A stretch of 59,854 bases of DNA from Rhodocyclaceae bacterium (GTDB taxonomy: Bacteria > Pseudomonadota > Gammaproteobacteria > Burkholderiales > Rhodocyclaceae), in NCBI GenBank assembly GCA_020445665.1, contig JAGRGD010000194.1, positions 1-59,854 of the forward strand, in the 5' to 3' direction. Position numbers and translations under genes: made by a program. Position 1 is the first letter of the stretch. Every line of letters starts with the position of its first letter. This document shows, piece after piece, positions 1,260-27,358 of the stretch. The notes under the pieces were generated by a model. That model had not been told where the DNA came from. It ran no database searches and saw only the letters and a program-made list of their open reading frames with translations.

Positions 1260-2576
1260 ATGGCATTCGATCGAGATGTAATCGTCATCGGCGGCGGGCC
1301 GGCAGGGTCCACCGCGGCCGCGCTGCTGGCCGAGAAGGGCCACCGGGTCACCCTGCTCGAAAAGGCACGCCACCCGCGTTTCCACATCGGCGAGTCCCTG
1401 CTGCCGGCCAACCTGCCGATCTTCGACCGGCTCGGGGTCGGCGACGAGATCCGCGCCCTCGGCATGGAGAAGCGGGGCGCGGAGTTTGTCTCTCCGTGGC
1501 ACGACCACCGGCAGATCTTCGAGTTTGCCGACGCCTGGGACAAATCGATGCCCCATGCCTATCAGGTCCGCCGTTCCGAGTTCGACGCGGTGCTGATCCG
1601 CAACGCCAGCCGGCTTGGTGCCGAGGTCATCGAGGGCTGCCGGGTGGTTGACGCGGATGTTTCCGGCGGTGTCGAGGGCGGGGTGTCGGTGACGGGTCGG
1701 CACGAGGACGGGCGGGAACAGATATGGCGAGCCCGCTTCCTGGTCGATGCCTCCGGGCGCGACACCTTCATGGCCAACCGGCTGAAATCGAAGCAGCGCA
1801 ACCCGAAGCACAACAGTTCGGCCATGTACGGTCACTTCCGCGGCGCGAAGCGTCTCGACGGGCGGAAGGAGGGTCACATCACGGTCTTCTGGTTCGACCA
1901 TGGCTGGTTCTGGTTCATCCCGCTGCGGGACGGCACCACCAGCGTCGGCGCGACGGTCTGGCCCTACTACCTGAAGCGGCGGAACAAACCGCTGCGTGAG
2001 TTCTTCCTCGACACCATCGCCCTGAGCCCGGCGCTCGGTGAGCGGCTGGCAGACGCAGAACTGGTCAATGAGGTGGAGGCCACCGGCAACTTCTCGTATC
2101 TCAACGATCACACCCACGGCGACAACTACCTGCTGCTGGGCGATGCGTTTGCGTTCATCGATCCGGTCTTTTCCTCCGGCGTGATGCTGGCGATGCAGGG
2201 CGGGGTCGGCGGCGCCGACGCCATCGATACCGTGCTGCGCGCGCCATCGCGGCGGCGCGCGGCCCTCGCCCGCTTCGACCGCATGGCCCGCCACGGCCCG
2301 CGCGAGTTCGCCTGGTTCATCTACCGCATCACCTCGCCGACCATGCGCGACCTGTTCATGGCGCCGCGCAACATGTTCCGCGTGCGCGAGGCGCTGCTGT
2401 CGGTGCTCGCCGGCGATATCTACGGCAAGACACCCATCTGGCATTCTTTGCGCGTCTTCAAGGTGATCTATTACCTGACGGCGCTGCGCTACCTGCCGCG
2501 CAGCTTTGCAGCCTGGCGTCGCCGCCGCGCCAACATCCGGCCCATGGACGACACCGGGCTGTCGGCAGGGACATGA
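1260..2576 (+). CDS. FAD-dependent oxidoreductase / flavin-dependent halogenase-like protein of the pigment cluster
   Basis: Flavoprotein of 438 residues. The Rossmann FAD motif GGGPAGST is at residues 11-18, followed by the family motif HIGESLLP. It carries the GWxWxIP motif (GWFWFIP) and the FxxPxxSxG motif (FIDPVFSSG) that mark flavin-dependent halogenases; Lys71 (MEKRGAEF) is a candidate for the catalytic lysine. Relatives occur in aryl-polyene and xanthomonadin loci, and Xanthomonas xanthomonadins are brominated, so aryl-ring halogenation is a reasonable inference. Reduction or oxidation of the polyene by a halogenase-fold enzyme is the alternative. It is the first gene of a five-gene plus-strand operon, preceded by an AGGCGGAA ribosome site and overlapping the next gene by ATGA. 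No flavin reductase is encoded nearby, so reduced flavin would have to come from elsewhere. Confidence 0.8.
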   Translation: MAFDRDVIVIGGGPAGSTAAALLAEKGHRVTLLEKARHPRFHIGESLLPANLPIFDRLGVGDEIRALGMEKRGAEFVSPWHDHRQIFEFADAWDKSMPHAYQVRRSEFDAVLIRNASRLGAEVIEGCRVVDADVSGGVEGGVSVTGRHEDGREQIWRARFLVDASGRDTFMANRLKSKQRNPKHNSSAMYGHFRGAKRLDGRKEGHITVFWFDHGWFWFIPLRDGTTSVGATVWPYYLKRRNKPLREFFLDTIALSPALGERLADAELVNEVEATGNFSYLNDHTHGDNYLLLGDAFAFIDPVFSSGVMLAMQGGVGGADAIDTVLRAPSRRRAALARFDRMARHGPREFAWFIYRITSPTMRDLFMAPRNMFRVREALLSVLAGDIYGKTPIWHSLRVFKVIYYLTALRYLPRSFAAWRRRRANIRPMDDTGLSAGT

Positions 2577-3571
2577 GCCGCACAATCGCTTCCCTCTCGC
2601 CGGTCGCCGCTGCCGCCAAGGATCCGTCGCTGCTCGGTGGGCTGGCCTTTGGCCGGGGCCACGACCACGCGCCGCACCTGATGCCGGTGCTGGCGCCCCA
2701 GCGGATCCCCGGGACGCCACTCGCGGTGTGCCTGTCGGCGGGCGGCGAACCTGTCGTTGCGGGCGAGCACGGGCGGGTGCGCTGGCGCGAGGCGGGCCCA
2801 CTGCTGTTCGGCGAGGTGCGCATCGACGAGGCCAGCTTCGGCGACGACCTGCCGTCACGCCTGATGGACGCGACCACCAGCGCCTACCAGGACATCTTCG
2901 CGACCCTGGACGCGCGGGGTTTCGACACCCTCGCGCGGGCCTGGAACTACCTGCCGGACATCAACCGCGAGACCCACGGACTGGAGCGCTACCGCCAGTT
3001 CAATGCCGGTCGGCAGGTGGCCTTTGCCGCCAGTGGACGTCCCCTGGTGGGCAATGTGCCGGCGGCCTGTGCGCTGGGCACCCGTGAGGGTCCGCTGTCG
3101 ATCGCCTTCCTCGCGGCCCGTGGCGACTTCCTGCCGCTCGAGAATCCGCGCCAGGTCAGCGCCTACCACTATCCGCGGGACTACGGCGAGCGTAGCCCGA
3201 CCTTCTCGCGCGCCGGCATCCTGCGCCTGCCGGGACGGGAGCTGCTGTTCGTCTCAGGCACCGCGGCGATCGTCGGCCACCGCTCCCTGCACCCGGACGA
3301 CGTGGTGGCCCAGACCCAGGAGACCCTCGCCAACCTGCGCTCGGTGGTGGCGGAAGCAGTGCAGGCATCGCCGAGCATGCCGGCGTCTCTCGAGGCGCTC
3401 GATTTCACGATCTACCTGCGCCGCGCCGGCGATCTCGAGACCGTGTGCTCGGTGATCACCGAGTCTCTCGGTGGCCTGCCCCGCTGCGTGGTCGTCGAGG
3501 CCGATGTGTGCCGCAGCGACCTGCTGGTGGAGATCGAGGCCACCGGCGAATCTGCCCTGGAGAGTGTCTAG
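2573..3571 (+). CDS. Chorismatase / pteridine-dependent dioxygenase-like protein (hydroxybenzoate synthase, XanB2-type)
   Basis: Predicted to convert chorismate to pyruvate plus a hydroxybenzoate, the aromatic starter unit. Established: the FkbO/Hyg5/XanB2 family has a RidA-like fold, and XanB2 of Xanthomonas makes 3- and 4-hydroxybenzoate for xanthomonadin. Here the protein is 332 residues and shows the family segments YHYPRDYGERSPTFSRA and GTAAIVGHRSLHPDDVVAQT followed by QETLANL. The start ATG overlaps the upstream stop by ATGA, so the two are translationally coupled. Its presence, and the absence of a tyrosine/histidine ammonia-lyase gene in the cluster, argues for a chorismate-derived head group. 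Product regiochemistry (3- or 4-hydroxy) cannot be read from the sequence alone. Confidence 0.85.
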   Translation: MSRTIASLSPVAAAAKDPSLLGGLAFGRGHDHAPHLMPVLAPQRIPGTPLAVCLSAGGEPVVAGEHGRVRWREAGPLLFGEVRIDEASFGDDLPSRLMDATTSAYQDIFATLDARGFDTLARAWNYLPDINRETHGLERYRQFNAGRQVAFAASGRPLVGNVPAACALGTREGPLSIAFLAARGDFLPLENPRQVSAYHYPRDYGERSPTFSRAGILRLPGRELLFVSGTAAIVGHRSLHPDDVVAQTQETLANLRSVVAEAVQASPSMPASLEALDFTIYLRRAGDLETVCSVITESLGGLPRCVVVEADVCRSDLLVEIEATGESALESV

Positions 3572-4410
3572 TGTTCTGCCAGCTGCGTTCTGTCTGCCTC
3601 GTACTGAGCCTGTGCCTGGCCTCGATGCCGGCCCTGGCCGGAGACCAGAAGCCCCTGTGGGAGTTCGGGCTCGGCGTCGGGGCGGTGAGTTTCCCCGACT
3701 ACCGGGGCTCCGACGAGCGCCAGACCTACCTCCTGCCGACGCCCTATGTGGTCTATCGGGGTGAGTTCCTGCGCTCCGACCGCAAGGGCCTGCGCGGCGT
3801 CTTCTTCGACAGCGAGCGTCTCGAGCTGAACCTCAGCCTGTCCGGATCGGTGCCGGTAGATAGCGACGGCAACAAGGCCCGCCGGGGCATGCCGGACCTG
3901 CGACCGACCGTCGAGTTCGGGCCCTCGCTCGACCTGACCCTGTGGCACAGCGACGACGGCCGACGTTCCCTCGACCTGCGCCTGCCCGTGCGGTGGGCCG
4001 TCCGTGTCGGGGGCAAGCCGCGCGACGTCGGGCTGGTCTTCAGCCCGCGCCTGAATCTGGACCTGTTCGATCCGGCCGGCTTCGAGGGCTGGAAGCTGGG
4101 CCTGCTGGCGGGGCCGATCTTCACCGACCGGCGCAACAACGCCTATTACTACGATGTGGCGCCCGAGTACGCCACCGCCGACCGACCGGCCTACGCCAGC
4201 GCCGGCGGTTACGCCGGCAGCCAGTTCGTGGTGGCGCTGTCGAAGCGATTCCCGCGGTTCTGGCTGGGCTTCTTCTCGCGCTACGACAGCCTCGGTGGCG
4301 CGGCTTTCGCCGACAGCCCGCTGGTGCAGAGCCGCCACATGTGGGCTGCCGGTGTCGCGATCTCCTGGATCATCGGCGAGTCGGCCACCCTGGTGGACGA
4401 TGCCGAGTGA
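3571..4410 (+). CDS. MipA/OmpV family outer membrane protein
   Basis: Predicted outer membrane beta-barrel of 279 residues with a cleavable signal peptide (hydrophobic core LVLSLCLASMPALA, cut before GDQ). The mature protein opens with FGLGVGAVSFPDYRGSD, the usual start of MipA/OmpV proteins. It then alternates aromatic and hydrophobic residues in strand-like blocks and includes SKRFPRFWLGFFSRYDSL. The start chosen is the GTG that shares a base with the preceding TAG stop; it is the only start that gives a clean signal peptide. Its place between the chorismatase and lipid-modifying enzymes suggests a role in anchoring or delivering the pigment at the outer membrane, but this is inference. It overlaps the next gene by 11 bases. 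Confidence 0.85.
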   Translation: MFCQLRSVCLVLSLCLASMPALAGDQKPLWEFGLGVGAVSFPDYRGSDERQTYLLPTPYVVYRGEFLRSDRKGLRGVFFDSERLELNLSLSGSVPVDSDGNKARRGMPDLRPTVEFGPSLDLTLWHSDDGRRSLDLRLPVRWAVRVGGKPRDVGLVFSPRLNLDLFDPAGFEGWKLGLLAGPIFTDRRNNAYYYDVAPEYATADRPAYASAGGYAGSQFVVALSKRFPRFWLGFFSRYDSLGGAAFADSPLVQSRHMWAAGVAISWIIGESATLVDDAE

Positions 4411-5215
4411 GGGTCTGGCCGGGCCGGGCCGTGCAGAGCGCGAGCGTGAGCGCCTGTCGCGCCCGCGGGAGTACCTGTGCCTGTACCTGGGGCTCGGCTT
4501 CCTGGGCCTCGAGTGCCTCGTCTGGCTGCCCTTCGCTGCCCTGCTCCACCTGCTGCTGCCGGCCGCGATCGGACAGCGGGTCGGACGGCGGGTGATCCGC
4601 TTCGGCTTCGCCCTCTACCTGCGCTGGCTGAGCCTGCTCGGGGCGTGCCGCTTCGATGTCTCGGCCCTGGACGGCCTGGCCGACGAGGGCCCGCTGATCA
4701 TCGCCCCCAACCACCCTTGTCTGCTCGACGCGGTGATGGTGATCGCCTGCCTGCCGAACGTGGCCTGCATCATGAAGGCCGGGCTGATGAACAACATCTT
4801 TCTCGGCGCCGCTGCCCGTCTGGCGGGCTACATCCGCAACGAACCGACCCTGGCGATGGTGCTCTCGTCGGTGACCGAGCTGGAGAAGGGTGGCCAGCTG
4901 CTGCTGTTTCCCGAAGGCACGCGGACCGTAAACGACCCGATCAACCCCTGCCTGCCGAGTGCCGCGATCATCTCGGGGCGCTCGGGGGTGCCGATCCAGA
5001 CCGTCCTGATCGAGACCGACTCGGCCTATCTCGCCAAGGGCTGGCCCCTGTTCCGCCGGCCGGACATGCCGATCCGCTACCGCCTGCGGCTCGGAGAGCG
5101 CTTCGCGCCGGACACCGATCACGAGGCCCTCACCCACCGGCTCGAGACCTATCTCGCCGGGGCGATGCGGGCCTCCGACATGAAACCACCGGCGGCGCCG
5201 GCGAGCCAGGCATGA
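4400..5215 (+). CDS. Lysophospholipid acyltransferase family protein (PlsC-like)
   Basis: Membrane-associated acyltransferase of 271 residues. It has an N-terminal hydrophobic segment (about residues 25-60), the catalytic HX4D motif in NHPCLLD and the substrate-binding FPEGTR motif. In pigment clusters of this type such enzymes are thought to transfer the polyene acyl chain or a fatty acid to a glycerolipid or sugar. The ATG start lies 11 bases inside the preceding gene; the reading frame remains open upstream, but the upstream frame belongs to the OmpV-like gene, so this start is favoured. It overlaps the glycosyltransferase gene by four bases. Confidence 0.87.
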   Translation: MPSEGLAGPGRAERERERLSRPREYLCLYLGLGFLGLECLVWLPFAALLHLLLPAAIGQRVGRRVIRFGFALYLRWLSLLGACRFDVSALDGLADEGPLIIAPNHPCLLDAVMVIACLPNVACIMKAGLMNNIFLGAAARLAGYIRNEPTLAMVLSSVTELEKGGQLLLFPEGTRTVNDPINPCLPSAAIISGRSGVPIQTVLIETDSAYLAKGWPLFRRPDMPIRYRLRLGERFAPDTDHEALTHRLETYLAGAMRASDMKPPAAPASQA

Positions 5216-5970
5216 ATCCGTCTGCCAGTCATCTGGTGCTGATCCCCAGTTTCAACCCGGGCGAGAAGGTGTTCGAGACGGTGGCGGAGGCGCGCGCCCG
5301 CTGGACACCGGTTTGGGTCGTCGTCGATGGCAGCACCGATGGCACCGGCGACCGCCTGGCGGCGCTGGCAGCCGGGGACGAGGGCTTGCGGGTGATCCGC
5401 CTGCCGGAGAATCGCGGCAAGGGCGCGGCGGTGCTTGCCGGCCTCGACGAAGCCGTCCGCTGCGGGTTCAGCCATGTCCTGACCATGGACTCCGACGGCC
5501 AGCACCCGGCGGCGCTGATCCCGGACTTCATGGCCGCTTCTGCGCAGGCGCCCGGCAGCATGATCCTCGGCAAGCCGGTGTTCGACGACAGCGCGCCAGC
5601 GATCCGCGTGCGCGGCCGGAAGATCTCCAACTGGTGGGCCAATCTCGAGACCCTTGGCGCCGGCATCGGGGATTCGCTGTACGGATTCCGCGTCTATCCG
5701 GTCGAGGCCCTGCGTCAGGTCATGCGTGGCCAGCGCTGGATGCGCCGCTTCGACTTCGACCCGGAGGCGGTCGTGCGCCTCGCGTGGCGGGGCGTTACAC
5801 CGGTCAACCTGCCGGCCCCGGTGCGCTACCTGCAGGCCGACGAGGGCGGTGTATCCCACTTCAACTACCTGCGCGACAACGTCCTGCTGACCTGGATGCA
5901 CATCCGCCTGATGGTCGGCTTCGGCCTGCGCCTGCCGTGGCTGCTGGCGCGGCGCCTACGCGCGCCCTGA
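5212..5970 (+). CDS. Family 2 glycosyltransferase
   Basis: GT-A fold glycosyltransferase of 252 residues. It begins with VLIPSFNPG, carries the sugar-nucleotide segment VVDGSTDGTG, and has the metal-binding DXD motif within TMDSDGQHP. The ENRGKGAAVLAG segment is typical of dolichol-phosphate-mannose-synthase-like GT2 proteins; there is one weak C-terminal hydrophobic stretch (MVGFGLRLPWLL). It probably glycosylates the pigment or its lipid anchor; the sugar is unknown. It is the last gene of the plus-strand operon and overlaps the convergent PAP2 gene by 15 bases, leaving no room for an ordinary intergenic terminator. Confidence 0.87.
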   Translation: MNPSASHLVLIPSFNPGEKVFETVAEARARWTPVWVVVDGSTDGTGDRLAALAAGDEGLRVIRLPENRGKGAAVLAGLDEAVRCGFSHVLTMDSDGQHPAALIPDFMAASAQAPGSMILGKPVFDDSAPAIRVRGRKISNWWANLETLGAGIGDSLYGFRVYPVEALRQVMRGQRWMRRFDFDPEAVVRLAWRGVTPVNLPAPVRYLQADEGGVSHFNYLRDNVLLTWMHIRLMVGFGLRLPWLLARRLRAP

Positions 5971-6612
5971 GTCGGCCCGGCGCTGCCAGGCGGCGAGCAG
6001 CGCGACGCCGGCAAGGCCCAGCGCGACGCCCGCCACGAGGTCGAGAAAGACGTGCTGACGGGTCGTGATCGTGGACAGGATGATGGCGATGCCCCAGGCC
6101 ATATTGACGCCCTTGGCGATGCGGCCCTCGCCCATCTGGCAAAGGATGCGGTGCAGCCACACGGCGGAGAAGGCGGCGGTGGCCACGTGGAGGGAGGGGC
6201 AGGCGTTGCCGGCCTTGTCGATGCCCTGCAGCACCGCCGAGCCGGGGAAGTCCTGCCAGTCGAGGGGGAAGCGGGGCACCGCGGTCGGCCAGAGCAGGAA
6301 GCAGGCGAGTCCGGCCAGGCACACACCGCCGATCACGATCCCGTAACGGTCCAGCTCACGCCGGTCGACAATCAGGCTCGGCGGCAGGCTCACATACACC
6401 CACAGGCTCAGGTAGGCGGGCAGTGACGCGGGCAGGAACGGGATCCAGTGATCGATCGCGGTCACCGGCATCTCCGTCACCGGCCACAGAGGGTGGTTGA
6501 GGAGATGGAAGTAGGCGACGAAGAAGGTCGTCATGAAGGCGGTGATGCCGACCGCCTTGAGGGGCAGCAGGGGCCGGACGCGATCCCACACGCGCAGGAT
6601 GGGTCCGGGCAC
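5956..6612 (-). CDS. PAP2-type integral membrane phosphatase family protein
   Basis: Polytopic membrane protein of 218 residues with about five or six hydrophobic segments. It has PAP2-like motifs: a conserved CPSLHVATA block (SxxH proton donor region) and, further on, TTRQHVFLDLVAG (the RxxxxxHxxxD region). The first PAP2 motif (KxxxxxxRP) is weak. Family members remove phosphate from lipid phosphates or transfer it, so it may act on the lipid carrier of the polyene. The start is a GTG five bases after the fabG-like stop; the reading frame stays open upstream but inside the neighbouring gene. It is the last gene of the minus-strand pigment operon. Confidence 0.78.
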   Translation of the reverse strand: MPGPILRVWDRVRPLLPLKAVGITAFMTTFFVAYFHLLNHPLWPVTEMPVTAIDHWIPFLPASLPAYLSLWVYVSLPPSLIVDRRELDRYGIVIGGVCLAGLACFLLWPTAVPRFPLDWQDFPGSAVLQGIDKAGNACPSLHVATAAFSAVWLHRILCQMGEGRIAKGVNMAWGIAIILSTITTRQHVFLDLVAGVALGLAGVALLAAWQRRADSGRA

Positions 6613-6617
6613 GGCTG

Positions 6618-7340
6618 CTACGCCATTCCGCCGTTGATCGAGATGACCTGGCCGCTGATGTAGGCGGCCTGCTCCGAGGCCAGAAAGCCGACCAGGTCCG
6701 CCACCTCTTCCGGTCGGCCGCTGCGTTTCATCGGCACCAGCTGAGCCATCTGCTTCGGGTCGAACTGGCCCTCGCTCATGGCGGTCTCGATGATGCCGGG
6801 CGCGACCGCGTTGACCGTGATGCCCCGCGCCGCCACCTCCAGGGAAAGGGCGCGGGTGGCCGCATGGAGGGCGCCCTTGGCGGCGGCGTAGTTCACCTGG
6901 CCGCGGTTGCCCATCACCGCGGCAACCGAGGTGATGCTGATGATGCGACCCCAGCGGGTGCGGATCATCGGCAGCAGCAGGGGCTGGGTGACCCGGTAGA
7001 AGCCGTTCAGGTTCACATCGACAACCCGTGACCACTGGGCTTCGCTCATGCCCGGAAAGACCGCGTCGTCGTGGATGCCGGCATTGTTCACCAGGACCTG
7101 GATCGGGCCGTCCTCGAGGAGCGCCGCGGTGGCCGCGGCACAGGCCTCGGCGTCGGCCAGGTCGAAGGCCAGCGCGCTGGCCGAACCGCCGCCTGCGCGG
7201 ATGACCTCGGCGAGGGCCTCGGCGCGGTCCCCATGGGAATTGGCATGCACCACCACCGAGAAGCCGTCGGCTGCCAGTCGCCGGCAGATCGCGGCACCGA
7301 TGCCGCCGCTGCCACCGGTCACGAGGGCGCGCCGGCTCAC
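6618..7340 (-). CDS. 3-ketoacyl-ACP reductase (FabG-like SDR) of the pigment cluster
   Basis: Classical short-chain dehydrogenase of 240 residues, predicted to reduce the beta-keto group of the growing polyene chain with NADPH (ApeQ-type role). Visible are the cofactor motif TGGSGGIG near the N-terminus, NNAG, the catalytic Ser in SITSVAAVMG, the YAAAK pair and the C-terminal ISGQVISINGG that is typical of FabG. The GTG start overlaps the upstream dehydratase stop (GTGA). It is one of three chain-processing genes grouped at the end of this operon, after the ketosynthase and chain-length factor. Confidence 0.9.
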   Translation of the reverse strand: MSRRALVTGGSGGIGAAICRRLAADGFSVVVHANSHGDRAEALAEVIRAGGGSASALAFDLADAEACAAATAALLEDGPIQVLVNNAGIHDDAVFPGMSEAQWSRVVDVNLNGFYRVTQPLLLPMIRTRWGRIISITSVAAVMGNRGQVNYAAAKGALHAATRALSLEVAARGITVNAVAPGIIETAMSEGQFDPKQMAQLVPMKRSGRPEEVADLVGFLASEQAAYISGQVISINGGMA

Positions 7341-9770: not shown

Positions 9771-9821
9771 GGGTGGTGTCGGGCAGATTCCGGCGTCGAT
9801 TCTAGCAAAGGCGTCGCCCCC

Positions 9822-12003: not shown

Positions 12004-14335
12004 GGCGCGGGCGGGCGGCGAACATCGCCGAGAAGCACAGGGCGAGCATCGCGCCGGGGCCGACGATGACGCCGATGGCGTGCATGACCGGCACCGAGGA
12101 CAGGGCCAGCACGCCGAAGCCGCACAGGGTCGTCAGGTTGGCGATCAGCAGCGAGGCGAGGGTCTCCGGCTCGGGCAGACCCTCGGCCGGGTCGGCGGTG
12201 ACGAAGAACAGGGCGTAGTTCGAGCCGACGGCGCCGACCAGCAGCATGCCGACCAGGTGGAGCAGGGTCAGGTGCTCGCCGGACAGCACCACGGTGGCGG
12301 TGACCACCAGCACCGCCGCGGTCAGTGGCAGCACCAGGCGCAGCACCCGGGCCGGACTGCGCAGGGTCGCCAGCAGCACCACGACGATCGCCGCGACGCC
12401 GGCCAGGCCCGCGGTCCAGGCCTCGCGCAGATAGGTGGCGTACATGCGCTGGGACTCCTTCGCCAGGTCGATGAAGACGGTCTGGGGGACGTCGGCGGTG
12501 GCAACCGCCTGACCGATCCGCTCGGCGTCGAGGTCGCGCATGCCCTGGTCGCCGCGGGGGCTGGAGAGGGGGAGGAGTGCCCGCCAGTGGTCCCCCTGGC
12601 GGATCAGCATGGCCTCCAGACCCAGCCCGATGCCGGTGCCGGCCAGGGTCGCCGGGGAGAGCAGCGGGCGCTCGCGGGCGGCCTGGACATCCTCGATGAA
12701 GCCCTCGAGGCGTGCGGCCTTCAGCGGCAGGGTCTCGGTGGCCCGGGCGAGGCGCTGGCGTAGCTGGTCCGGTGCCGGCAGGGCGTCGCGGCGGCCCTGC
12801 TGGGTGCGCAGGCTGGGCAGCAGGCGGGCAGGGCTGTCGTAGGCGGCGATCTGTCCTTCCGCCTGCAGGCCCTCGAGGGTTGGCGCCAGGGCCTCGGCCT
12901 GCTGCAGGGCGTGCTCGGCGCTGCTCGCACTGGTGACGACCAGGAAGCGGGTGTCCGGCGCGCCCAGGTCGGCGCGGAGCATGGCATCGAGTTGCTGGGC
13001 AGCGAGCGGAATCGGACTCAGGGCCGACAGCTCGTGGTGCCACAGGGTGTCGCGTTGCTGCCACAGCAGGGTGGCGGCCGCGAGGGCCACCGCCACCGCG
13101 GGCCAGCGCAGGCGGGTCATCGCCAGGATCGGGCGCGACAGCCAGCGTCCGAGGGGCGCCACGTCGCGGGCACGAAAGCCCGCCGGGGTCAGGGCCGGCA
13201 ACACGAAGCGGGTGGTCAGGACCGCCGCGAGGAGGCCCGCCATCGAGTAGGTGCCGAGCTGGGCGAGCCCCGGGAAGCCCGACAGCAGCAGGGCGCCGAA
13301 GCCGCACAGGGAGGTGACGACGCCGAGGCGGATGGTGCGCCAGAAGGCATCCCGCGCCCGCGCCGCGCCCTGGACGAAGAAATAGATCGCGTAGTCGATG
13401 GCCTCGCCGATCAGCGTGATGCCGAAGCCGAGCGTGATGCCGTGCACCTCGCCGAAGGCCAGGCTGACGGCGAGAATGCCGGCCAGCGCGCCGGTCACCA
13501 CCGGGGCGAGGCCGAGGGCCAGTGCCGCGAGGGAGCGGTAAATGACGAGCAGCATCGTGATGATCAGGGCCGCGCCGATCATCGACAGGCGCGTGATCTC
13601 GCTGCGGATGGTCTCGCGGGCATCCACCGCGAAGACGCCCGGACCGGTCATCATCAGCGCCAGATCACGGGAGCCGTGACTCTCCCGCGCGACCACGAAG
13701 GCGTCGCGGATGGCGCCGATGGCGGTCTCCTGGCCGTCGGTGTCCGAGCCGGGCGCGCGGGTGGTGGCGAGCAGCAGGGCCCGCTCGCCGTCGGCCGAGG
13801 CCCAGACGCCGTCTCGTCGCGCGGGCTGGCTGCCACCGGTGAAGCTGTCCAGTACGGCGAGGGTTTCGGCGGTGGGGTCGCGGGCCAGCAGGGGCTTGAT
13901 CATCAGGCCGGCGGACGATGCCAGCAGATCCATGGTGTGGCTGATGGCGTGGTACAGGCCGGCGTCGCTGAAGTGCTCGGCATCCACCGCGGGACTGAGC
14001 AGGTAGCGGTTGTCGAAAACCCAGGCGCGGTCGGCCTCGGAGTGGCCCCTGGCGCCGTTGGTGACGGACAGGAAGCGGGGGTCCTGGCGCATCGCGCCGG
14101 TCATCGCGTTGGAGACGGCCGCCCGTTCGGCGGCAGTCCCGCCGCGGATGCCCACCAGCAGCAGGCGCGAGACCATGCCGTCGCGCAGCAGGTCCACCAG
14201 CAGGGCCTGCTCCTCGGTCGGCGAACTGGGCAGGAAGGCCGACAGGTCGGCCGTGAAGCGGGTGCGAAAGACGTTGCCGACACACAGGGCGACGACCAGC
14301 AGCCAGACCGCGATGAACAGGGCGCGGCGGCTCAT
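11990..14335 (-). CDS. MMPL/RND-family exporter
   Basis: Inner membrane protein of 781 residues built from two similar halves. Each half has one N-terminal transmembrane helix, a large periplasmic loop and a bundle of about five helices, about 12 segments in all. The first helix is FIAVWLLVVALCV and is followed by the loop start FRTRFTADLSAFLP. Proton-binding type segments include GITLIGEAIDYAIYFF and the second-half equivalent VGAVGSNYALFFV. Aryl-polyene and xanthomonadin clusters carry such a protein to move the lipid-linked pigment to the periplasm. It overlaps the LolA-like gene by four bases, which fits joint export. Confidence 0.87.
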   Translation of the reverse strand: MSRRALFIAVWLLVVALCVGNVFRTRFTADLSAFLPSSPTEEQALLVDLLRDGMVSRLLLVGIRGGTAAERAAVSNAMTGAMRQDPRFLSVTNGARGHSEADRAWVFDNRYLLSPAVDAEHFSDAGLYHAISHTMDLLASSAGLMIKPLLARDPTAETLAVLDSFTGGSQPARRDGVWASADGERALLLATTRAPGSDTDGQETAIGAIRDAFVVARESHGSRDLALMMTGPGVFAVDARETIRSEITRLSMIGAALIITMLLVIYRSLAALALGLAPVVTGALAGILAVSLAFGEVHGITLGFGITLIGEAIDYAIYFFVQGAARARDAFWRTIRLGVVTSLCGFGALLLSGFPGLAQLGTYSMAGLLAAVLTTRFVLPALTPAGFRARDVAPLGRWLSRPILAMTRLRWPAVAVALAAATLLWQQRDTLWHHELSALSPIPLAAQQLDAMLRADLGAPDTRFLVVTSASSAEHALQQAEALAPTLEGLQAEGQIAAYDSPARLLPSLRTQQGRRDALPAPDQLRQRLARATETLPLKAARLEGFIEDVQAARERPLLSPATLAGTGIGLGLEAMLIRQGDHWRALLPLSSPRGDQGMRDLDAERIGQAVATADVPQTVFIDLAKESQRMYATYLREAWTAGLAGVAAIVVVLLATLRSPARVLRLVLPLTAAVLVVTATVVLSGEHLTLLHLVGMLLVGAVGSNYALFFVTADPAEGLPEPETLASLLIANLTTLCGFGVLALSSVPVMHAIGVIVGPGAMLALCFSAMFAARPRHVVA

Positions 14336-14913
14336 GCGGGCGGGCCGGCGGCGGGGCGCAGGGTCATGACCGAGCGGTCGCCGTCACCCTGCAGGATCTC
14401 GATCGAGCGGATGTGGCCGCCCTCCCCCTCGATGTGGATGCGCAGGACCAGTTCGGCGAGGTGGCCGTCGTTGGGCAGGAGGTCGAGCGACCAGGCCTCC
14501 CGGTCGCCGGCGAGGGAGAGATGAAAGCGCCGCTCGAGGGTGGCCCTGTCACCCGCGAGGGTGCCGCGAATGCTGTCGATGAAGGCGGCGGCCTCGGGGT
14601 AGTCGCGCAGGCGCAGGTCGAGCTCGCGGCCGTCGCGGCGGATGCTCAGGTTGTCTCCGTCGAGGACCATGGTCTCGGGCTTGGGGCTGACCGTCTGGCG
14701 CTCGAGCCGGCCGGGTGGCGTGAAGCGCATGCGCCCGCTGGAGACCACCGGCTGGTCGAGGATCGCGAGGTACTTGCGCTCGACGAAGTCGACCGCGCCA
14801 CCCGATCGGTCGGCCAGGTGCTGCATCAGGAGGTCGAGGGTCCACGGTTCCGTTGCGTGGGCGGAACTCGCCAGCAGGGCGAGGAGCACAAGGCGGAGGC
14901 AGCGTCGGATCAT
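14332..14913 (-). CDS. LolA-like outer membrane lipoprotein carrier-related protein
   Basis: Periplasmic protein of 193 residues with a signal peptide (LRLVLLALLASSAHA, cut before TEP). The mature part matches the layout of LolA-like proteins in these clusters: a DFVERKYLAILDQPVVSSGR strand block and a PPGRLERQTVSPKPE block. LolA-type proteins carry acylated cargo through the periplasm, so with the MMPL exporter it probably shuttles the polyene lipid to the outer membrane. The start at the ATG overlapping the upstream stop (ATGA) is chosen because it gives a clean signal peptide; a longer frame is open upstream inside the acyltransferase gene. Confidence 0.82.
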   Translation of the reverse strand: MIRRCLRLVLLALLASSAHATEPWTLDLLMQHLADRSGGAVDFVERKYLAILDQPVVSSGRMRFTPPGRLERQTVSPKPETMVLDGDNLSIRRDGRELDLRLRDYPEAAAFIDSIRGTLAGDRATLERRFHLSLAGDREAWSLDLLPNDGHLAELVLRIHIEGEGGHIRSIEILQGDGDRSVMTLRPAAGPPA

Positions 14914-15848
14914 GTTGCCGTGGGCTCTGAGCGAGCCCAGAAATCGTAGAAGTTGAACCAGTTGTCGGGGGCGTCGCGGCAGCACCGCTCCAGTTCGCGA
15001 GCATACGCCAGCAGCGCGGTATCGACTGCCGCGGCACGGGCGCCGCGCTCGACCTGCGAGAAGTCGGCCAGCTCGACGAAGCGGATCCGGTAGCGGTTGC
15101 CGCCGAGGTACAGGCCGGCCATGAAGACGATCCGGTGGCGCAGCATCGCGGCCATCCGGAAGGCGCCGACGGGCAGGCGCGCGGTGTCGCCGAGGAGCGG
15201 CACCGACCGTGTTTCGTCGGCGTCGAGGCTGCGATCGGCGAGCAGGCCGACGAACTGGCCATCCTCGAGGGCGTCCCGCACCCGGAGCATGGTGTCCACC
15301 TGTCCGAGCGGGATGATCTCGGGCCGTGCCGCGGGGTTGATGGCCTCAAGGGTGGCTTTGATCTTGCGCGCGTTGTCCTCGAACATCGTCAGCGCGATGC
15401 GCAGCCCCGGGTGGCGGCGTCCGAGGGCGCGGACCACCTCGAAGCTCCCCAGGTGCGCGCCGAACAGCAAGGCGCCCTCGCCCCGCCCGAGCAGATCGTG
15501 CATCAGGGGCTCCCCCTCCACCTCGATGTCGAACAGGTCGAAGCGGTCGGCAAGAAGGTAGACCCGGTCGTGGATCGTCGAGGCGAAGGCGTGGACGTGG
15601 CGTGCGATGTCGGCGAGGCCGGGCTCGCGGCCGAGGGCGCGGCGCAGGTAGTCGCGGGAGGCCCGCCGGGCCTTCGGCGCGAAGGCCACGAAATAGGCGC
15701 TGATGCCGAGCAGCACGAGGCGCCCGACGGGGCGGCCGAAGGTGAGCGAGATCCAGGTCATCAGCCGCAGGGTTGCGAGGTTGCTGCGCTCCGGCTGGCG
15801 GACCCACGGGGTCTCGCGGGCCGTGTCGGTCGGCTCCGGGCGGGCCAC
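14910..15848 (-). CDS. LpxL/HtrB-type lysophospholipid acyltransferase family protein
   Basis: Acyltransferase of 312 residues with the HX4E motif in GAHLGSFEVV, as in lipid A late acyltransferases, and a hydrophobic N-terminal segment (RLVLLGISAYFVAF). Further family-like blocks are FVGLLADRSL and the C-terminal DNWFNFYDFW. It could join the aryl-polyene acyl group to its lipid anchor, while the PlsC-like enzyme of the plus operon does the other acylation. The start is a GTG two bases after the dehydratase stop. A genuine lipid A role is less likely, given the location inside the pigment operon. Confidence 0.85.
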   Translation of the reverse strand: MARPEPTDTARETPWVRQPERSNLATLRLMTWISLTFGRPVGRLVLLGISAYFVAFAPKARRASRDYLRRALGREPGLADIARHVHAFASTIHDRVYLLADRFDLFDIEVEGEPLMHDLLGRGEGALLFGAHLGSFEVVRALGRRHPGLRIALTMFEDNARKIKATLEAINPAARPEIIPLGQVDTMLRVRDALEDGQFVGLLADRSLDADETRSVPLLGDTARLPVGAFRMAAMLRHRIVFMAGLYLGGNRYRIRFVELADFSQVERGARAAAVDTALLAYARELERCCRDAPDNWFNFYDFWARSEPTAT

Positions 15849-15850
15849 GC

Positions 15851-16150
15851 TCAGGCCTCCAGCGGGCCGATCCTGCCGCTGGCGATGGTGCGCCCGCCGC
15901 AATCGATGCGGAACGCCCGCAGGCCGCCGGCGGCGGGGGGCGAGACGGTGAGATCCAGGTGCTCGTCGGGGCCCGCCGGCGACAGAAACTTGGCCGTGGC
16001 GACGCGCCATGGCCCGGCTTCACCGGCCTCGGCAAGGGTTTCGACGACCCGGTCGAGCAGCCAGGCCCCGGGCACCACCGGGTGGTCCGGGAAGTGGCCG
16101 GCGAAGACCGGGTGGTCGGCCGGCATCGAGATGCGCCGGTGGACCGTCAC
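15851..16150 (-). CDS. Short hot-dog 3-hydroxyacyl-ACP dehydratase (ApeI-like)
   Basis: Hot-dog domain of 99 residues with the FabZ/FabA core motif HPVFAGHFPDHPVVPG, in which the His and the following glycine-proline turn line the active site. It is predicted to form trans double bonds on the polyene chain, working with the longer dehydratase at 7337-7771. The GTG start overlaps the ligase stop (GTGA). Two dehydratases of different length are typical of aryl-polyene clusters, which supports the assignment. Confidence 0.85.
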   Translation of the reverse strand: MTVHRRISMPADHPVFAGHFPDHPVVPGAWLLDRVVETLAEAGEAGPWRVATAKFLSPAGPDEHLDLTVSPPAAGGLRAFRIDCGGRTIASGRIGPLEA

Positions 16151-17490
16151 GGCGCGGCCTCCCGGTGCTCGGACAGGAGCCTGTCGCAGACTTCCCGAGG
16201 CAGCTTGCCGGTGGCGTTGCGCGGCAGCTGGTCGAGGAGGATCAGCGGCCGCGGCAGGAACACCGGGTCGATGCGTTCGCGCAGGCCTGCGAGGACCTGC
16301 CGGGCGCTCATGCCGGGTGCCACTGCCAGGGCCGCAGGGCGGCCGATGTCGTCCGCCGGGGCTGTATCCGGCATGAAGAAGGCACCGTCACGAACCCCCT
16401 CGACGGCCAGCAGCTGGGCACTGAGATAGCCGACCGAGCTGCGCTTGCCGGCGACGTTGACCAGGTCACTGTTGCGGCCGCACAGGCGGAAGGCGCGGGG
16501 GCCGTCGATCGCGATCACGTCGGCCAGCGGCATGGGGGCTTCCACGTGCCCGCCGGAGGCCCAGCAGGCGTCGTCGCGCTGGCTCAGGCAGACATTCGGG
16601 AAGAGCCGCCACTGGGGTCCGTCGAGGGTGCGGCGGGTCGCCAGCTGGCTGGTCTCGGTGCTGCCGTAGATCTCGAGCAGGGGGCAGCCGAAGGCGGCTT
16701 CGGCGCGCCGCGCCAGGCCCACGTCGAGGGGGGCCGTCGCCGAGACGACGCGGTCTGCGGCCGGCACCGCCTGACCCGACTCGAGCAGGTTGCGGAGGTG
16801 GAAGGGCGTCGTGACGAGGAGGCGGGGTGCCGGCAGCGCGGCGAGGCGCTCGGTGATCTCGGTCGGGAAGAAGGGTCGCTCGGCAACCAGTTGCCCGCCA
16901 CACAGCAGGGGCATCAGCACCGTCGTCTCGAAGCCGTACATGTGCTGCGGTGGCACCGTGCCGAGCACCGCGAAGGGGGTGTCGGCGGCGAGGCCGAGCT
17001 CGCCCCGCTCGGCCCGGACGTTGGCGACCAGCTTGCCCCAGGTCTTGCGATGGGGTACCGGGTCGCCGGTCGAGCCCGAGGTGAACACCCAGGCGACCGG
17101 ATGGTCTGCCGGGATCGCCGGGATCGGCTCGTCGTCGGCAGGCGCCGGTGACTCATCGGGGAACATCAGCAGCGGCAGGTCGGTGGCGAGGCGCGGGTCG
17201 TCCGTGACCACGAAGGCGTCCTCGGCGAAGGCTTTGAGCTGGCTGGCGACCGTGGCATTGAAGGTGGAGGGCAAGAGGCCGGTGCGGCCGCTTGTGAGTC
17301 CGGCGGCGAGGGTCACCGCGAAGCGGTAGCGGTCGGCGCAGTGGGCCAGATAGTGCCGCCGACCCTCGGGCATCTGCGCGGCGAGTGCACGGGCATGGGC
17401 CATGAAGGCGTTGCGGCTGACCGGCTGGCCGTCGCGCCAGGCGACGAGGCTGTCGGGCAGCGGGTGCGAGAGCAACGGTATTGGTGGCAA
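16147..17490 (-). CDS. AMP-dependent acyl-ACP/CoA ligase (hydroxybenzoate-activating, ApeH/XanA2-like)
   Basis: ANL-family adenylating enzyme of about 447 residues. Core motifs are visible: A3-like FTSGSTGDPVPHRKTWGKL, A5-like EIYGSTETSQ, the RLCGRNSDLVNVAGKRSS hinge region and the C-terminal catalytic lysine in LPRNATGKLPRE. The enzyme is predicted to adenylate the hydroxybenzoate made by the chorismatase and load it onto an ACP; XanA2 of Xanthomonas does this with 3-hydroxybenzoate. The start is uncertain: no ATG or GTG fits, and the TTG at 17490 is chosen because it follows an AGG-containing region just after the upstream gene ends; a TTG at 17475 is the alternative. Confidence 0.85.
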   Translation of the reverse strand: MPPIPLLSHPLPDSLVAWRDGQPVSRNAFMAHARALAAQMPEGRRHYLAHCADRYRFAVTLAAGLTSGRTGLLPSTFNATVASQLKAFAEDAFVVTDDPRLATDLPLLMFPDESPAPADDEPIPAIPADHPVAWVFTSGSTGDPVPHRKTWGKLVANVRAERGELGLAADTPFAVLGTVPPQHMYGFETTVLMPLLCGGQLVAERPFFPTEITERLAALPAPRLLVTTPFHLRNLLESGQAVPAADRVVSATAPLDVGLARRAEAAFGCPLLEIYGSTETSQLATRRTLDGPQWRLFPNVCLSQRDDACWASGGHVEAPMPLADVIAIDGPRAFRLCGRNSDLVNVAGKRSSVGYLSAQLLAVEGVRDGAFFMPDTAPADDIGRPAALAVAPGMSARQVLAGLRERIDPVFLPRPLILLDQLPRNATGKLPREVCDRLLSEHREAAP

Positions 17491-17515
17491 GGGACGACCT
17501 GTTGGGCGTGTCGCG

Positions 17516-18199
17516 TCAGCGGGCGGTGAGGTTGGCGGGGGCCATGTCGCAGGCTTCCGCCGGCTTGACGCGCGGCGCCGCGACGGCGCGGATCGAAGCA
17601 ATCAGGCCGGTGCGATATTCCTGCGGCAGGCGCTGGCGGACGACGAACTCGGCCAGGAACATCGCCCCGATCAGGCCGGGCGTGAGGAGGTTGGCGAAGG
17701 CCGACCACCAGCCGATCGGTGCCAGGAGGAAGAGGCCCAGCGAGGTGGTGGCCATCGCGGCGAAGAACGCGGTCCACGCCACGGTTGCGCCGCGGGTGTA
17801 GTGCGCCAGCGCGGGCGGCAATGAACCATGCACCCGCTCGGCGAAGCCCGAGATCATCGGTACGGCGCCGTCGCCGAGGGTGCGCCCGAAGCCGATCGCC
17901 AGCAGCGTGAAGGTGCCGGCGTGCTGAATCAGGTAGATCCACGCGAAGTTGTCGGCGAGCAGGGCTCGCTGGCTCGCCAGCAACAGTGCCACGAGCAGCC
18001 AGGCGGTGAGGGCCAGGGTGCGTCGCCGGGCGCGCCAGGCCATGGCCAGGGCAACCGCCATGTACGGCCCCAGAGCCAGCAGGGCACCGGCCGTGCTGGG
18101 CCGGTCGGCGGCAGTCACGACATGGGACAGCCAGTAGTACAGGCCCGCCACCGCCACGATGGCGAGGACACGAAACGCCGTGGCGGGCCTCAGCTTCAT
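17516..18199 (-). CDS. COG4648-type integral membrane protein of aryl-polyene clusters
   Basis: Polytopic membrane protein of 227 residues with about six hydrophobic segments (first VLAIVAVAGLYYWLSHVV, later LGLFLLAPIGWWSAFANLL). It resembles the membrane protein COG4648 found in most aryl-polyene gene clusters; its biochemical role is unknown to me. The ATG start overlaps the ACP stop by ATGA. Its fixed place between an ACP and the ligase suggests a part in assembly at the inner membrane. Confidence 0.78.
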   Translation of the reverse strand: MKLRPATAFRVLAIVAVAGLYYWLSHVVTAADRPSTAGALLALGPYMAVALAMAWRARRRTLALTAWLLVALLLASQRALLADNFAWIYLIQHAGTFTLLAIGFGRTLGDGAVPMISGFAERVHGSLPPALAHYTRGATVAWTAFFAAMATTSLGLFLLAPIGWWSAFANLLTPGLIGAMFLAEFVVRQRLPQEYRTGLIASIRAVAAPRVKPAEACDMAPANLTAR

Positions 18200-18471
18200 T
18201 GGCTGCGGTGGGTCGCCACGTAGTCCGCGAGGCTCGCCAGCGAGGCGAAGATGCGGACGTTGTCCTCGTTGTCGGAGCGCAGCGTGAAGCCGTAGCGCTT
18301 CGACAGGACGAGGGCGACCTCCAGGATGTCGATGGAGTCCAGGCCCAGGCCATCGCCGTAGAGCGGTGCGTCGGGCTCGATTTCCTGGGCGGTGACGTCG
18401 AGGTTGAGGGCGCTGACGATCTGTTCGGCGACTTCCAGTCGCAGCGCGTCGGTGGCGGGGGTGTCGGTCAT
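18196..18471 (-). CDS. Acyl carrier protein (ApeE/F- or XanC-like)
   Basis: Small acidic four-helix ACP of 91 residues with the phosphopantetheine attachment motif GLGLDSIDILEV; Ser46 is the predicted attachment site. It should carry the aryl starter or the growing chain. The ATG at 18471 is chosen because it gives a normal-length ACP; the frame extends upstream to 18525 without likely ribosome site. It follows a 126-base gap that contains two back-to-back hairpins after the ketosynthase gene. Confidence 0.88.
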   Translation of the reverse strand: MTDTPATDALRLEVAEQIVSALNLDVTAQEIEPDAPLYGDGLGLDSIDILEVALVLSKRYGFTLRSDNEDNVRIFASLASLADYVATHRSQ

Positions 18472-18539
18472 GCTCTCTCGAACGGCAAGGCCGGCGGCAT
18501 CTTTAGCCTGCCGGGCAGCCTGCAAAATCAGTTGGTTGG

Positions 18540-18590
18540 GGCGGCGCCCATTTTATCGTCTGGCGCCGCCGGCAAGAAGTGGCGCTTGCC
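18540..18590 (-). repeat. Two adjacent hairpins between ketosynthase and ACP genes
   Basis: Two inverted repeats sit side by side. GGCGGCGCC at 18540-18548 pairs with GGCGCCGCC at 18562-18570 around a 13-base loop, and GGCAAG at 18571-18576 pairs with CTTGCC at 18585-18590. On the transcribed minus strand the smaller hairpin comes first. No T-run follows, so a simple Rho-independent terminator is unlikely; an mRNA-stability element, a partial terminator or a REP-like repeat are options. It is the only large gap in the first part of an otherwise overlapping operon. Confidence 0.6.
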
Positions 18591-18597
18591 ACGGACC

Positions 18598-19845
18598 CTA
18601 GACCGGGGCGTGGCGGAAAACCAGCACCGAGTTGGTGCCGCCGAAGGCGAAGGAGTTGGACATGCAGGCGCGCAGCGGGCGGCGGAGCCCGCTGTCGCGC
18701 ACATGGCCGACGCCCTCGCAGGCCGGGTCGACGGTGTCGAGGTGGGCGGTGGGCGGAATAGCACCCTGGCGCAGCGCCTCGACGCAGATCAGGGCTTCGG
18801 TCGCGCCGGTCGCGCCCATCAGGTGGCCGTGCATGGACTTGGTGGCGCTGACCGGCAGCTCGGCCGCGCGGTCGCCGTACAGGCGGCGGATCGCCTCGAC
18901 CTCGATCGGGTCGCCTTCGCGCGTGGCGGTGCCGTGGGCATTGACGTAGTCCACCTCGTCCGGCGACAGGCCGGCCAGCTCGAGGGCCTGGCTCATGGCG
19001 GCGTACTGGCCGTCGGGCGAGGGCTTGACCAGGTGGCTGGCGTCGCAGCTGCTGCCATAGCCGGCCAACTCGGCCAGGATCGTCGCGCCGCGGGCGCGGG
19101 CGTGCTCCCACTCCTCGAGGACCAGCGCCGCGGCGCCTTCGGCCAGCACCAGCCCGGCGCGGTCGGCGCTGAACGGTCGGCAGGCGGCCTCGGCGCCCCG
19201 CTTTCCGACCGGGGCCAGCACCCGCAGGGCCTCCCAGGCGCGCACCACCGCCAGCGACATCGGGCTGTCGGCGCCGCCGGTCAGGGCCACGTCGGTGCGG
19301 CCGTCGCGGATCGCCTGCCAGGCCTCGCCAATCGCCGCGGCCGCCGAGGCGCAGGCGATGGTGTAGGTCAGGCAGGGCCCGCCGAGCTTGAAATGGATCG
19401 CCAGGTGGGAGGCAGCCGCGTTGTTCATGCCGAGGATCAGCGACAGGGGCGGCACCCGCTCGCGTCCCTTCAGCAGCATCTCCCGGTAGCCCTGCTCGTA
19501 GGTCAGGGTGCCGGCCAGGGCGGTGCCCCAGTACATCGCCGCGCGGCGATCGGCGGTCTCGGGGATCGCCCGGCCCGACTGCTGCCAGGCCTGGCGACAG
19601 GCGGCGAAGCTCATCTGAGCGGAGCGGTCCATGGTCGCGGCCGCGCGCCCGACCTCGGCCTGGGCGTCGAAGCCGGGGCAATGGACCGCCGGCATCGACA
19701 TGGAAAGGTGGCCTTCGTCGGTCTGGTAGTGATAGACGGCCGACTCGCCGGCCATCAGGCGGGCGAAGAAGTCGGCAACGTCCGAGCCCCACGGGCTGAC
19801 GACACCGAGGCCGGTGACAGCGACGCGGCGGGGCGGCTGATTCAC
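18598..19845 (-). CDS. Beta-ketoacyl-ACP synthase II-like protein (second ketosynthase, ApeR-like)
   Basis: Ketosynthase of 415 residues with catalytic Cys165 in YTIACASAAAA, His304 in NAHGTATREGD, and Lys336/His341 in SATKSMHGHLMGATG; the C-terminal NSFAFGGTNSVL is also present. FabF-like length and a complete triad point to an active condensing enzyme, probably for the first condensation or an accessory extension step, as it has no chain-length factor next to it. The GTG start overlaps the ACP stop by GTGA. Confidence 0.9.
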   Translation of the reverse strand: MNQPPRRVAVTGLGVVSPWGSDVADFFARLMAGESAVYHYQTDEGHLSMSMPAVHCPGFDAQAEVGRAAATMDRSAQMSFAACRQAWQQSGRAIPETADRRAAMYWGTALAGTLTYEQGYREMLLKGRERVPPLSLILGMNNAAASHLAIHFKLGGPCLTYTIACASAAAAIGEAWQAIRDGRTDVALTGGADSPMSLAVVRAWEALRVLAPVGKRGAEAACRPFSADRAGLVLAEGAAALVLEEWEHARARGATILAELAGYGSSCDASHLVKPSPDGQYAAMSQALELAGLSPDEVDYVNAHGTATREGDPIEVEAIRRLYGDRAAELPVSATKSMHGHLMGATGATEALICVEALRQGAIPPTAHLDTVDPACEGVGHVRDSGLRRPLRACMSNSFAFGGTNSVLVFRHAPV

Positions 19846-20081
19846 GGAGCGGCGTCCGGCGCGAGCTTCTCGAGCTGGTCCATCAGTTCCTGGACCGTGG
19901 TGGGGGTGGGCAGGTCGTCGGGCAGCTTGACGCCGGTCTTCTCCTCGTACTCGAACATCACCTCGAGCAGCATCAGCGAATCGATGCCGATGTCTGCGAG
20001 GACGGCCTCCGGTACGACGGTTTCCGGGTCGATGTCGGAGTGGGAGCTGACGAAATCGCGAATCAGTTTCAGGGCGTCCAT
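19842..20081 (-). CDS. Acyl carrier protein, first gene of the minus-strand pigment operon
   Basis: ACP of 79 residues with the DSL motif in DIGIDSLMLLEV; Ser35 is the predicted phosphopantetheine site. It is the most upstream gene of the 17-gene minus operon, facing divergently the proV gene about 256 bases away. The two ACPs of the cluster differ clearly in sequence (this one is the shorter, with a long acidic third region), so they probably serve different steps, such as starter loading versus chain extension. Confidence 0.88.
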   Translation of the reverse strand: MDALKLIRDFVSSHSDIDPETVVPEAVLADIGIDSLMLLEVMFEYEEKTGVKLPDDLPTPTTVQELMDQLEKLAPDAAP

Positions 20082-27350: not shown

Positions 27351-27358
27351 GGTGCGCC

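What the first reader, a model, noticed from the sequence alone, without database searches (positions are those of the whole stretch)
1260..20081. Hybrid aryl-polyene / xanthomonadin-type pigment cluster built on a chorismate-derived starter
The sequence shows a complete polyene synthase set (two KS, one chain-length factor, KR, two dehydratases, two ACPs, an AMP-ligase), plus a chorismatase of XanB2 type and no tyrosine- or histidine-ammonia lyase. Established work: XanB2 makes 3-/4-hydroxybenzoate and XanA2 loads it onto an ACP in Xanthomonas. Inference: this organism makes a hydroxybenzoate-started polyene, lipid-anchored and exported by the MMPL/LolA-like pair, close to xanthomonadin rather than to the E. 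coli aryl polyene.
Basis: partly seen in the sequence, partly recalled or inferred. Interest (0 to 1): 0.75.

Follow-up and report, generated by a model that had tools for sequence, protein, structure and literature searches.

The report
Arcuflavin/xanthomonadin-type yellow pigment gene cluster
This is an ordinary-looking set of genes for a yellow membrane pigment built on a ring made from chorismate, of the kind already known from Azoarcus and Xanthomonas; only a few accessory genes in it still lack a tested role.

Summary
Window 1260-20081 carries two convergent gene runs, 22 genes: a halogenase-like protein, a chorismatase, two ketosynthases, a chain-length-factor-like protein, a ketoreductase, two dehydratases, two ACPs, an AMP-ligase, acyltransferases, a glycosyltransferase and an MMPL/LolA pair. 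No aromatic ammonia lyase was found in the genome. By predicted function and order, 19 genes match the arc loci of Azoarcus sp. BH72, whose product arcuflavin is a published 3-hydroxybenzoate-started polyene. The block is syntenic in four congeners. The chorismatase keeps the catalytic Glu and two of three residues printed for 3-hydroxybenzoate formers. Two additions. No DarB (dialkylresorcinol) gene was found in this 93.65%-complete genome, unlike Azoarcus and one congener, so the product probably lacks that half. The unassigned arcO gene encodes an alpha/beta-hydrolase fold with an invariant Ser-Asp-His set, a candidate release or transfer enzyme. Verdict: new member of a known kind.

The parts
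1260..2576 (+). arcA-like flavin-dependent halogenase-like protein (438 aa)
   Evidence: PF04820 105 bits; GGGPAG at 11 and WFWFIP at 216; that these are halogenase motifs is recalled
2573..3571 (+). arcB/xanB2-like chorismatase (332 aa)
   Evidence: PF21168 124 bits; TIGR04444 209 bits, below its 325 cut-off; FkbO/Hyg5 in PDB, best E 4.7e-42
3570..4410 (+). arcC-like MipA outer-membrane protein (start approximate)
   Evidence: PF06629 144 bits
4400..5215 (+). arcD-like glycerol/lysophospholipid acyltransferase (start approximate)
   Evidence: PF01553; 33% over 132 residues to E. coli ApeD
5212..5970 (+). arcE-like GT2 glycosyltransferase
   Evidence: PF00535; 42% to E. coli ApeJ
5956..6612 (-). 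PAP2 superfamily membrane protein (start approximate); not in the Azoarcus arc list
   Evidence: PF14378, PF01569; PSLH and RQHVFLD; in place in 4 congeners
6618..7340 (-). arcH-like ketoreductase
   Evidence: NF004200 366 bits, over cut-off; 48% to ApeQ
7337..7774 (-). arcI-like dehydratase (assigned weakly)
   Evidence: no Pfam or NCBIfam hit; 27% to ApeP, E 4e-4 in an 18-protein set; synteny
7771..8574 (-). arcJ-like N-terminal ketosynthase / chain-length-factor-like protein
   Evidence: PF13723; only PDB matches 7f28_A and 6qsp_B, partner chains of the best matches of the KS below; S115 in 42/42 and its only Gln, Q154, in 41/42 rows
8574..9770 (-). arcK-like ketosynthase, Cys-His-His present
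   Evidence: NF006618 544 bits, over cut-off; best PDB matches 6qsp_A and 7f28_B; 42% to ApeO
9822..10535 (-). arcM-like SAM methyltransferase (candidate O-methylation of the ring)
   Evidence: PF13489
10532..11374 (-). arcN-like polysaccharide-deacetylase family protein
   Evidence: PF01522 91 bits; DDG and HSIENH
11335..12003 (-). arcO-like alpha/beta-hydrolase with S95, D177, H202
   Evidence: no family hit; the three residues 14 of 14; model pLDDT 94.5; Foldseek matches to esterases, lipases, a thioesterase domain
11990..14335 (-). arcP-like MMPL transporter
   Evidence: PF03176; 25% to ApeM
14332..14922 (-). arcQ-like LolA-like carrier (start approximate)
   Evidence: PF19574; 27% to ApeL
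14910..15857 (-). arcR-like LpxL-type acyltransferase (start approximate)
   Evidence: PF03279; 29% to E. coli ApeJ
15851..16150 (-). arcS-like hotdog dehydratase
   Evidence: PF07977 21 bits, under its cut-off of 23; 33% to ApeI
16147..17520 (-). arcT-like AMP-ligase (hydroxybenzoate:ACP ligase; start approximate)
   Evidence: PF00501 78 bits; TSGSTG and TGK; 27% to ApeH
17516..18199 (-). arcU/ApeG-like membrane protein
   Evidence: no Pfam hit; 26% over 88 residues to ApeG, E 4e-6
18196..18471 (-). arcV-like ACP
   Evidence: NF006617 134 bits, over cut-off; 47% to ApeE
18598..19845 (-). second ketosynthase, FabF-like, Cys-His-His present
   Evidence: NCBIfam fabF 386 bits, under its cut-off of 494; 34% to ApeR
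19842..20081 (-). second ACP (79 aa)
   Evidence: several ACP models, all under their cut-offs; 33% to ApeF; DSL site

Best explanation
The block makes a xanthomonadin/arcuflavin-type aryl polyene. The chorismatase converts chorismate mainly to 3-hydroxybenzoate. The AMP-ligase loads it on an ACP. The KS:CLF-like pair 8574-9770 / 7771-8574, helped by the FabF-like second KS and second ACP, adds malonyl units; the ketoreductase and the two dehydratases turn each unit into a double bond. The methyltransferase O-methylates the ring. The halogenase-like protein may halogenate it, or do something else: arcuflavin is not halogenated although its cluster has arcA. The alpha/beta-hydrolase ArcO probably releases the finished chain from ACP or hands it on. 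GT2, the two acyltransferases, the deacetylase and PAP2 build or attach a (glyco)lipid anchor. MMPL, LolA-like and MipA proteins bring the product to the outer membrane. Shown here: gene content, motifs, synteny, co-occurrence, the predicted ArcO fold, no DarB match. Inferred: every reaction, the product, anchor and export. As no DarB was found, the polyene is probably not esterified to a dialkylresorcinol as in Azoarcus.
For: 19 genes match the Azoarcus arc loci by predicted function and order; mutants, ArcB and ArcT assays and feeding are in PMC3949708. Chorismatase G229, C313, E320 align with Hyg5 G240, C327, E334; PMC7170507 names the equivalents of the Gly and Cys as Hyg5-type residues and the Glu as catalytic. 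KS and CLF-like proteins hit partner chains of 6qsp and 7f28 best. Co-occurrence 13 of 13. Synteny in congeners and, in part, in 80 named loci. No PF00221 match. A DarB query gives only FabH-level matches in the own genome, against 56-65% identity in G003, G018, G031, G059.
Against: The chorismatase scores below the TIGR04444 cut-off (209 of 325 bits) and has Ala at the third Hyg5-type position (A167), so its product split is not predictable; PMC3949708 says sequence alone does not tell. It changes fast: 51-55% in three congeners where arcA is 75-77%. Dehydratase assignments are weak. No Xanthomonas sequence was compared; Azoarcus BH72 was compared by its printed gene table only. The genome is 93.65% complete, so dar genes or an ammonia lyase could lie in the missing part.
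Confidence: 0.9

Rival explanations
1. Full arcuflavin: the same polyene esterified to a dialkylresorcinol made by darA/darB elsewhere in the genome, missed because the assembly is incomplete.
For: Congener G003 has a 56% DarB match. StlD/DarB-family genes, over the NF005293 cut-off in 4 of 4 tested, stand in Azonexus, Dechloromonas, Uliginosibacterium and Variovorax genomes that hold a chorismatase locus.
Against: The own genome shows only FabH (C225) and one more KS III (C265), which lies beside NeuB- and NeuD-like and weakly LuxC/E-like genes. Congeners G001, G002, G004 and G005 also lack a strong DarB match.
Confidence: 0.08
2. E. coli-type aryl polyene started from 4-hydroxybenzoate made by UbiC, the chorismatase serving something else.
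For: UbiC family PF04345 is present in the own genome; 14 of 18 E. coli ape proteins have a match in the block; ArcT of Azoarcus also accepts benzoates substituted in position 4 (PMC3949708).
Against: The chorismatase is the second gene of the run and occurs with the CLF-like gene in 13 of 13 genomes. ApeA, B, K and N have no match in the block, and arcA, B, C, M, N, O and PAP2 none among the ape proteins. A fluorinated 4-HBA was not incorporated in Azoarcus (data not shown there).
Confidence: 0.06
3. The chorismatase mainly supplies 4-HBA for ubiquinone, as described for Xanthomonas XanB2, with pigment as a side use.
For: XanB2 is described as making both 3-HBA and 4-HBA, the latter for coenzyme Q8 (PMC3949708).
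Against: The own genome has UbiC, as do 10 of 13 chorismatase-bearing genomes (35 of 48 of the others), so ubiquinone does not need it there.
Confidence: 0.03

Closest known systems
Arcuflavin loci arcA-L and arcM-X (+dar) of Azoarcus sp. BH72 (PMC3949708)
   Same: arcA-E, arcH-K and arcM-V correspond by predicted function and order
   Different: one contiguous block here, two unlinked loci in BH72; no gene of the predicted function of arcF, G, L, W or X in the block; PAP2, second KS and second ACP at the ends; no DarB match in the genome
Xanthomonadin cluster of Xanthomonas and the xanthomonadin-like cluster of Lysobacter enzymogenes (PMC3691225)
   Same: XanB2-type chorismatase, KS with half-CLF, KR, two DH, ACP, AT, LolA-like gene, exporters (passages)
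   Different: not compared by sequence here; Lysobacter has no halogenase gene; xanthomonadin I is dibrominated, here unknown
E. coli CFT073 aryl polyene cluster apeA-R (PMC8253772)
   Same: 14 of 18 ape proteins match 15 of 22 block proteins; ApeJ matches ArcE and ArcR
   Different: no chorismatase, halogenase-like, MipA or deacetylase gene; starter described as 4-HBA from UbiC; E. coli has thioesterase ApeK and DUF3261 protein ApeN
Flexirubin clusters of Bacteroidetes
   Same: flexirubin LolA2 and FlxB models score, below their cut-offs
   Different: flexirubin starts from tyrosine by an ammonia lyase (recalled); none found here

Membership tests
Arcuflavin/xanthomonadin-type aryl polyene cluster | XanB2-type chorismatase within the polyene cluster | tested here: met
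   PF21168 and Hyg5/FkbO homology with the catalytic Glu; which chorismatase type it is was not settled
Arcuflavin/xanthomonadin-type aryl polyene cluster | KS paired with a protein like the N-terminal half of a CLF | tested here: met
Arcuflavin/xanthomonadin-type aryl polyene cluster | AMP-ligase, ACP, KR, two DH, exporter and LolA-like gene in the cluster | tested here: met
   the two DH rest on weak matches and place
Arcuflavin/xanthomonadin-type aryl polyene cluster | 3-HBA is formed and incorporated | not testable with these tools
   residues only: G229, C313, E320 present, A167 in place of a Hyg5-type Gly
Arcuflavin proper (polyene-dialkylresorcinol hybrid) | darA/darB in the genome | tested here: not met
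   DarB query: FabH-level matches only, genome 93.65% complete; DarA was not searched
Brominated xanthomonadin proper | halogenated product | not testable with these tools
   halogenase-like gene with both motifs; arcuflavin has the gene yet is unbrominated
E. coli-type aryl polyene (APE_Ec) | ape gene set without chorismatase, with ApeK and ApeN | tested here: not met
Flexirubin type | tyrosine ammonia lyase starter supply (recalled) | tested here: not met
   no PF00221 match in the own genome
CH-II (Hyg5) chorismatase | Gly, Gly, Cys at Nat-Hyg5 164, 231, 318 | tested here: inconclusive
   two of three present, positions mapped by offset; no source I read gives the CH-III signature

The most novel reading that the evidence does not exclude
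Arc clusters without dar genes make their own lipid-anchored xanthomonadin, in which ArcO, an alpha/beta-hydrolase without an assigned role in the Azoarcus table, is the release or transfer enzyme in place of the thioesterase ApeK of E. coli, and the PAP2 protein finishes the lipid anchor.
Probability: 0.25. Interest if true: 0.35.

Novelty: new member of a known kind. Interest (0 to 1): 0.2.

Why it matters
It settles the likely pigment class of a Rhodocyclaceae lineage, shows that the arc block is kept in 5 of 6 genomes of the genus examined (own included), and names two untested genes (arcO, PAP2) for the unsolved release and anchoring steps. It does not open a new kind of pathway.

Tried and rejected
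Displacement of the chorismatase by horizontal transfer: it is 51-55% identical to that of three congeners, where the other block genes are 54-84%. Trees of arcB and arcA were built for 48 of the 84 sequences given; those without arcA, arcB and arcE matches over 70% of the query were dropped. The genus is one clade in both (95/92 and 100/100), so the gene is inherited with the rest and changes faster than arcA. Rejected.

Extra KS III (C265) as DarB: rejected by its neighbours. An ammonia lyase elsewhere in the genome: none found. Joined arc loci as a novelty: rejected, an arcP match lies inside the fetched stretch of 24 of 80 named chorismatase loci.

The preprint on the aryl polyene lipid structure (10.1101/2020.12.19.423268) is not held, so the anchor chemistry is left open.

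Errors of mine: the arcD query was in a wrong frame, so its arcD entries are void (corrected); protein 4 (window:5208-5967, meant as arcE) was out of frame and its 'no family' is void; arcE rests.
Full report
Observation. The window is contig C89 of a 4.79 Mb, 341-contig genome, 93.65% complete. Its kin are Rhodocyclaceae by record title: L024, 'MAG: Rhodocyclaceae bacterium isolate HKST-UBA162', lies on a contig as long as contig 135 of congener G005 (131,869 bases) and is very probably the same. ORFs, codon-position GC and profile searches resolve two convergent gene runs between 1260 and 20081: arcA-E on +, and on - second ACP, second KS, arcV, U, T, S, R, Q, P, O, N, M, K, J, I, H, PAP2, 22 genes in all. 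That each run is one operon is inferred from overlapping or closely spaced genes. Gene names follow the Azoarcus table by predicted function and order, not by a sequence test against BH72.

Motifs. Both KS have Cys, His, His. ACPs have DSI and DSL. The AMP-ligase has TSGSTG and TGK. The halogenase-like protein has GGGPAG and WFWFIP. The deacetylase has DDG and HSIENH. PAP2 has PSLH and RQHVFLD. The CLF-like protein matches only an N-terminal ketosynthase domain (PF13723); S115 is conserved in 42 of 42 rows and Q154 in 41 of 42. These may be the Ser and Gln studied in Lysobacter ORF16 (S120, Q166; PMC3691225 passages), but the spacing differs (39 against 46 residues), so I do not claim it. Its only PDB matches, 7f28_A and 6qsp_B, are partner chains of the best matches of the KS. 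That these entries are ApeO-ApeC complexes is recalled; PMC8358021 (passages) describes such structures.

Chorismatase. It aligns to Hyg5 and FkbO with G229, C313 and E320 at Hyg5 G240, C327 and E334; FkbO has Ala at the first two. [quoted passage not shown] By offset, the first Gly corresponds to A167, Ala in 12 of 13 aligned sequences. So a 3-HBA former is likely and a 3-/4-HBA mixture possible. UbiC is present in the own genome and in 10 of 13 chorismatase-bearing genomes, against 35 of 48 of the rest.

Context elsewhere. G001 and G003 have all 22 genes in the same order; G005 has them over L024 and L154 together; G002 up to the end of its contig, at arcM. G004, same genus and listed as 100% complete, lacks both chorismatase and CLF-like gene. 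Of 61 genomes 15 match the chorismatase at E <= 0.001, 13 of them at E <= 1e-50; 20 match the CLF-like gene at E <= 0.001, 15 at E <= 1e-50. At the stricter cut the 13 all lie among the 15; the other two are G035 (partial chorismatase match at a contig end) and G046 (none). Fisher P is 1.6e-11, or 3.7e-8 outside the genus; kinship is not removed by this test. Within these, tblastn at E <= 1e-6 finds arcE in 68, arcA in 53, arcK in 42, arcP in 24, PAP2 in 8 (L024 included) of 80. Many loci are cut short, and a few hits may be paralogues.

End product. Azonexus DarB (NF005293 586 bits, over cut-off; resorcinol_DarB 483 bits, under cut-off) finds only FabH-level similarity in the own genome, but 56-65% identity in G003, G018 (one in-frame stop), G031 and G059, all four with the chorismatase. 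Two further genomes, G043 and G049, have 38% matches and no chorismatase. DarA was not searched. Thus the own genome probably makes a polyene without the dialkylresorcinol half, while one congener may make the hybrid; G003 is 80% complete with 4% contamination, so even that is not certain.

ArcO. The Azoarcus table gives it no function. No Pfam or NCBIfam hit. A 14-row alignment has S95 (in GISIG), D177 and H202 invariant. AlphaFold2 gives pLDDT 94.5 and pTM 0.92. Foldseek finds esterases, monoglyceride lipases, ferulic acid esterases and the SulM thioesterase domain at E 4e-8 to 2e-7, TM about 0.6, rmsd 6-11 A, identity under 20%; the profile finds alpha/beta-hydrolases by sequence, best E 2e-6. 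The fold is well supported; a role in release or transfer is inference.

Comparison with E. coli. 14 of 18 CFT073 ape proteins are matched by 15 of 22 block proteins at E <= 0.01 in that 18-protein set; the weakest, arcI-ApeP, is 4e-4. ApeJ matches both ArcE (42%) and ArcR (29%). The second KS is nearer to FabF (best PDB match 278 bits) than to 7f27 (214) or 4ewg (210); PMC8358021 treats 4EWG as an ApeR homologue, that 7f27 is ApeR is recalled.

Literature seen: PMC3949708 parts 1-4 of 5; PMC8253772, PMC3691225, PMC7170507 and PMC8358021 by passages; of PMC9177418 one reference-list entry; search listings. No listed title or abstract start names this lineage or ArcO; that is no proof that nothing is in print.

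Verdict. Observation confirmed; interpretation right in its core and wrong in some arguments; an ordinary, well-formed member of a published cluster type.

Noticed in passing
window 56280-59854: dnaA, dnaN and a following gene with an HATPase domain (gyrB by place): the window holds the presumed origin region, about 36 kb from the pigment block. In Azoarcus BH72 the two arc loci have locus numbers azo0253-0264 and azo3910-3921, so they may flank its origin too.
   Followed up: no
window 2573-3571: The chorismatase is, with arcM, among the most divergent genes of the block between the window and congeners G001, G002 and G005 (51-55%), though inherited with the rest by tree.
   Followed up: yes
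window 5956-6612: PAP2 protein at the end of the long run, in place in four congeners and matched in 8 of 80 named chorismatase loci; not in the Azoarcus arc table.
   Followed up: partly
G033 contig 13 (L016, L023): Two different chorismatase genes on one 41 kb contig of a relative, one at each end.
   Followed up: no
L106 (own contig C265), 1974-14375: Gene cluster with NeuB- and NeuD-like proteins (under the NCBIfam cut-offs), weakly LuxC/LuxE-like proteins, an AMP-ligase, a KS III and an SDR: perhaps a nonulosonic-acid-type surface sugar cluster.
   Followed up: partly
window 26628-30273: A spondin_N-domain protein, a second one only weakly so, then a response regulator and a histidine kinase.
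   Followed up: no
L052: A MAG contig titled Bordetella parapertussis carries this pigment-type cluster; the title is probably a wrong label.
   Followed up: no
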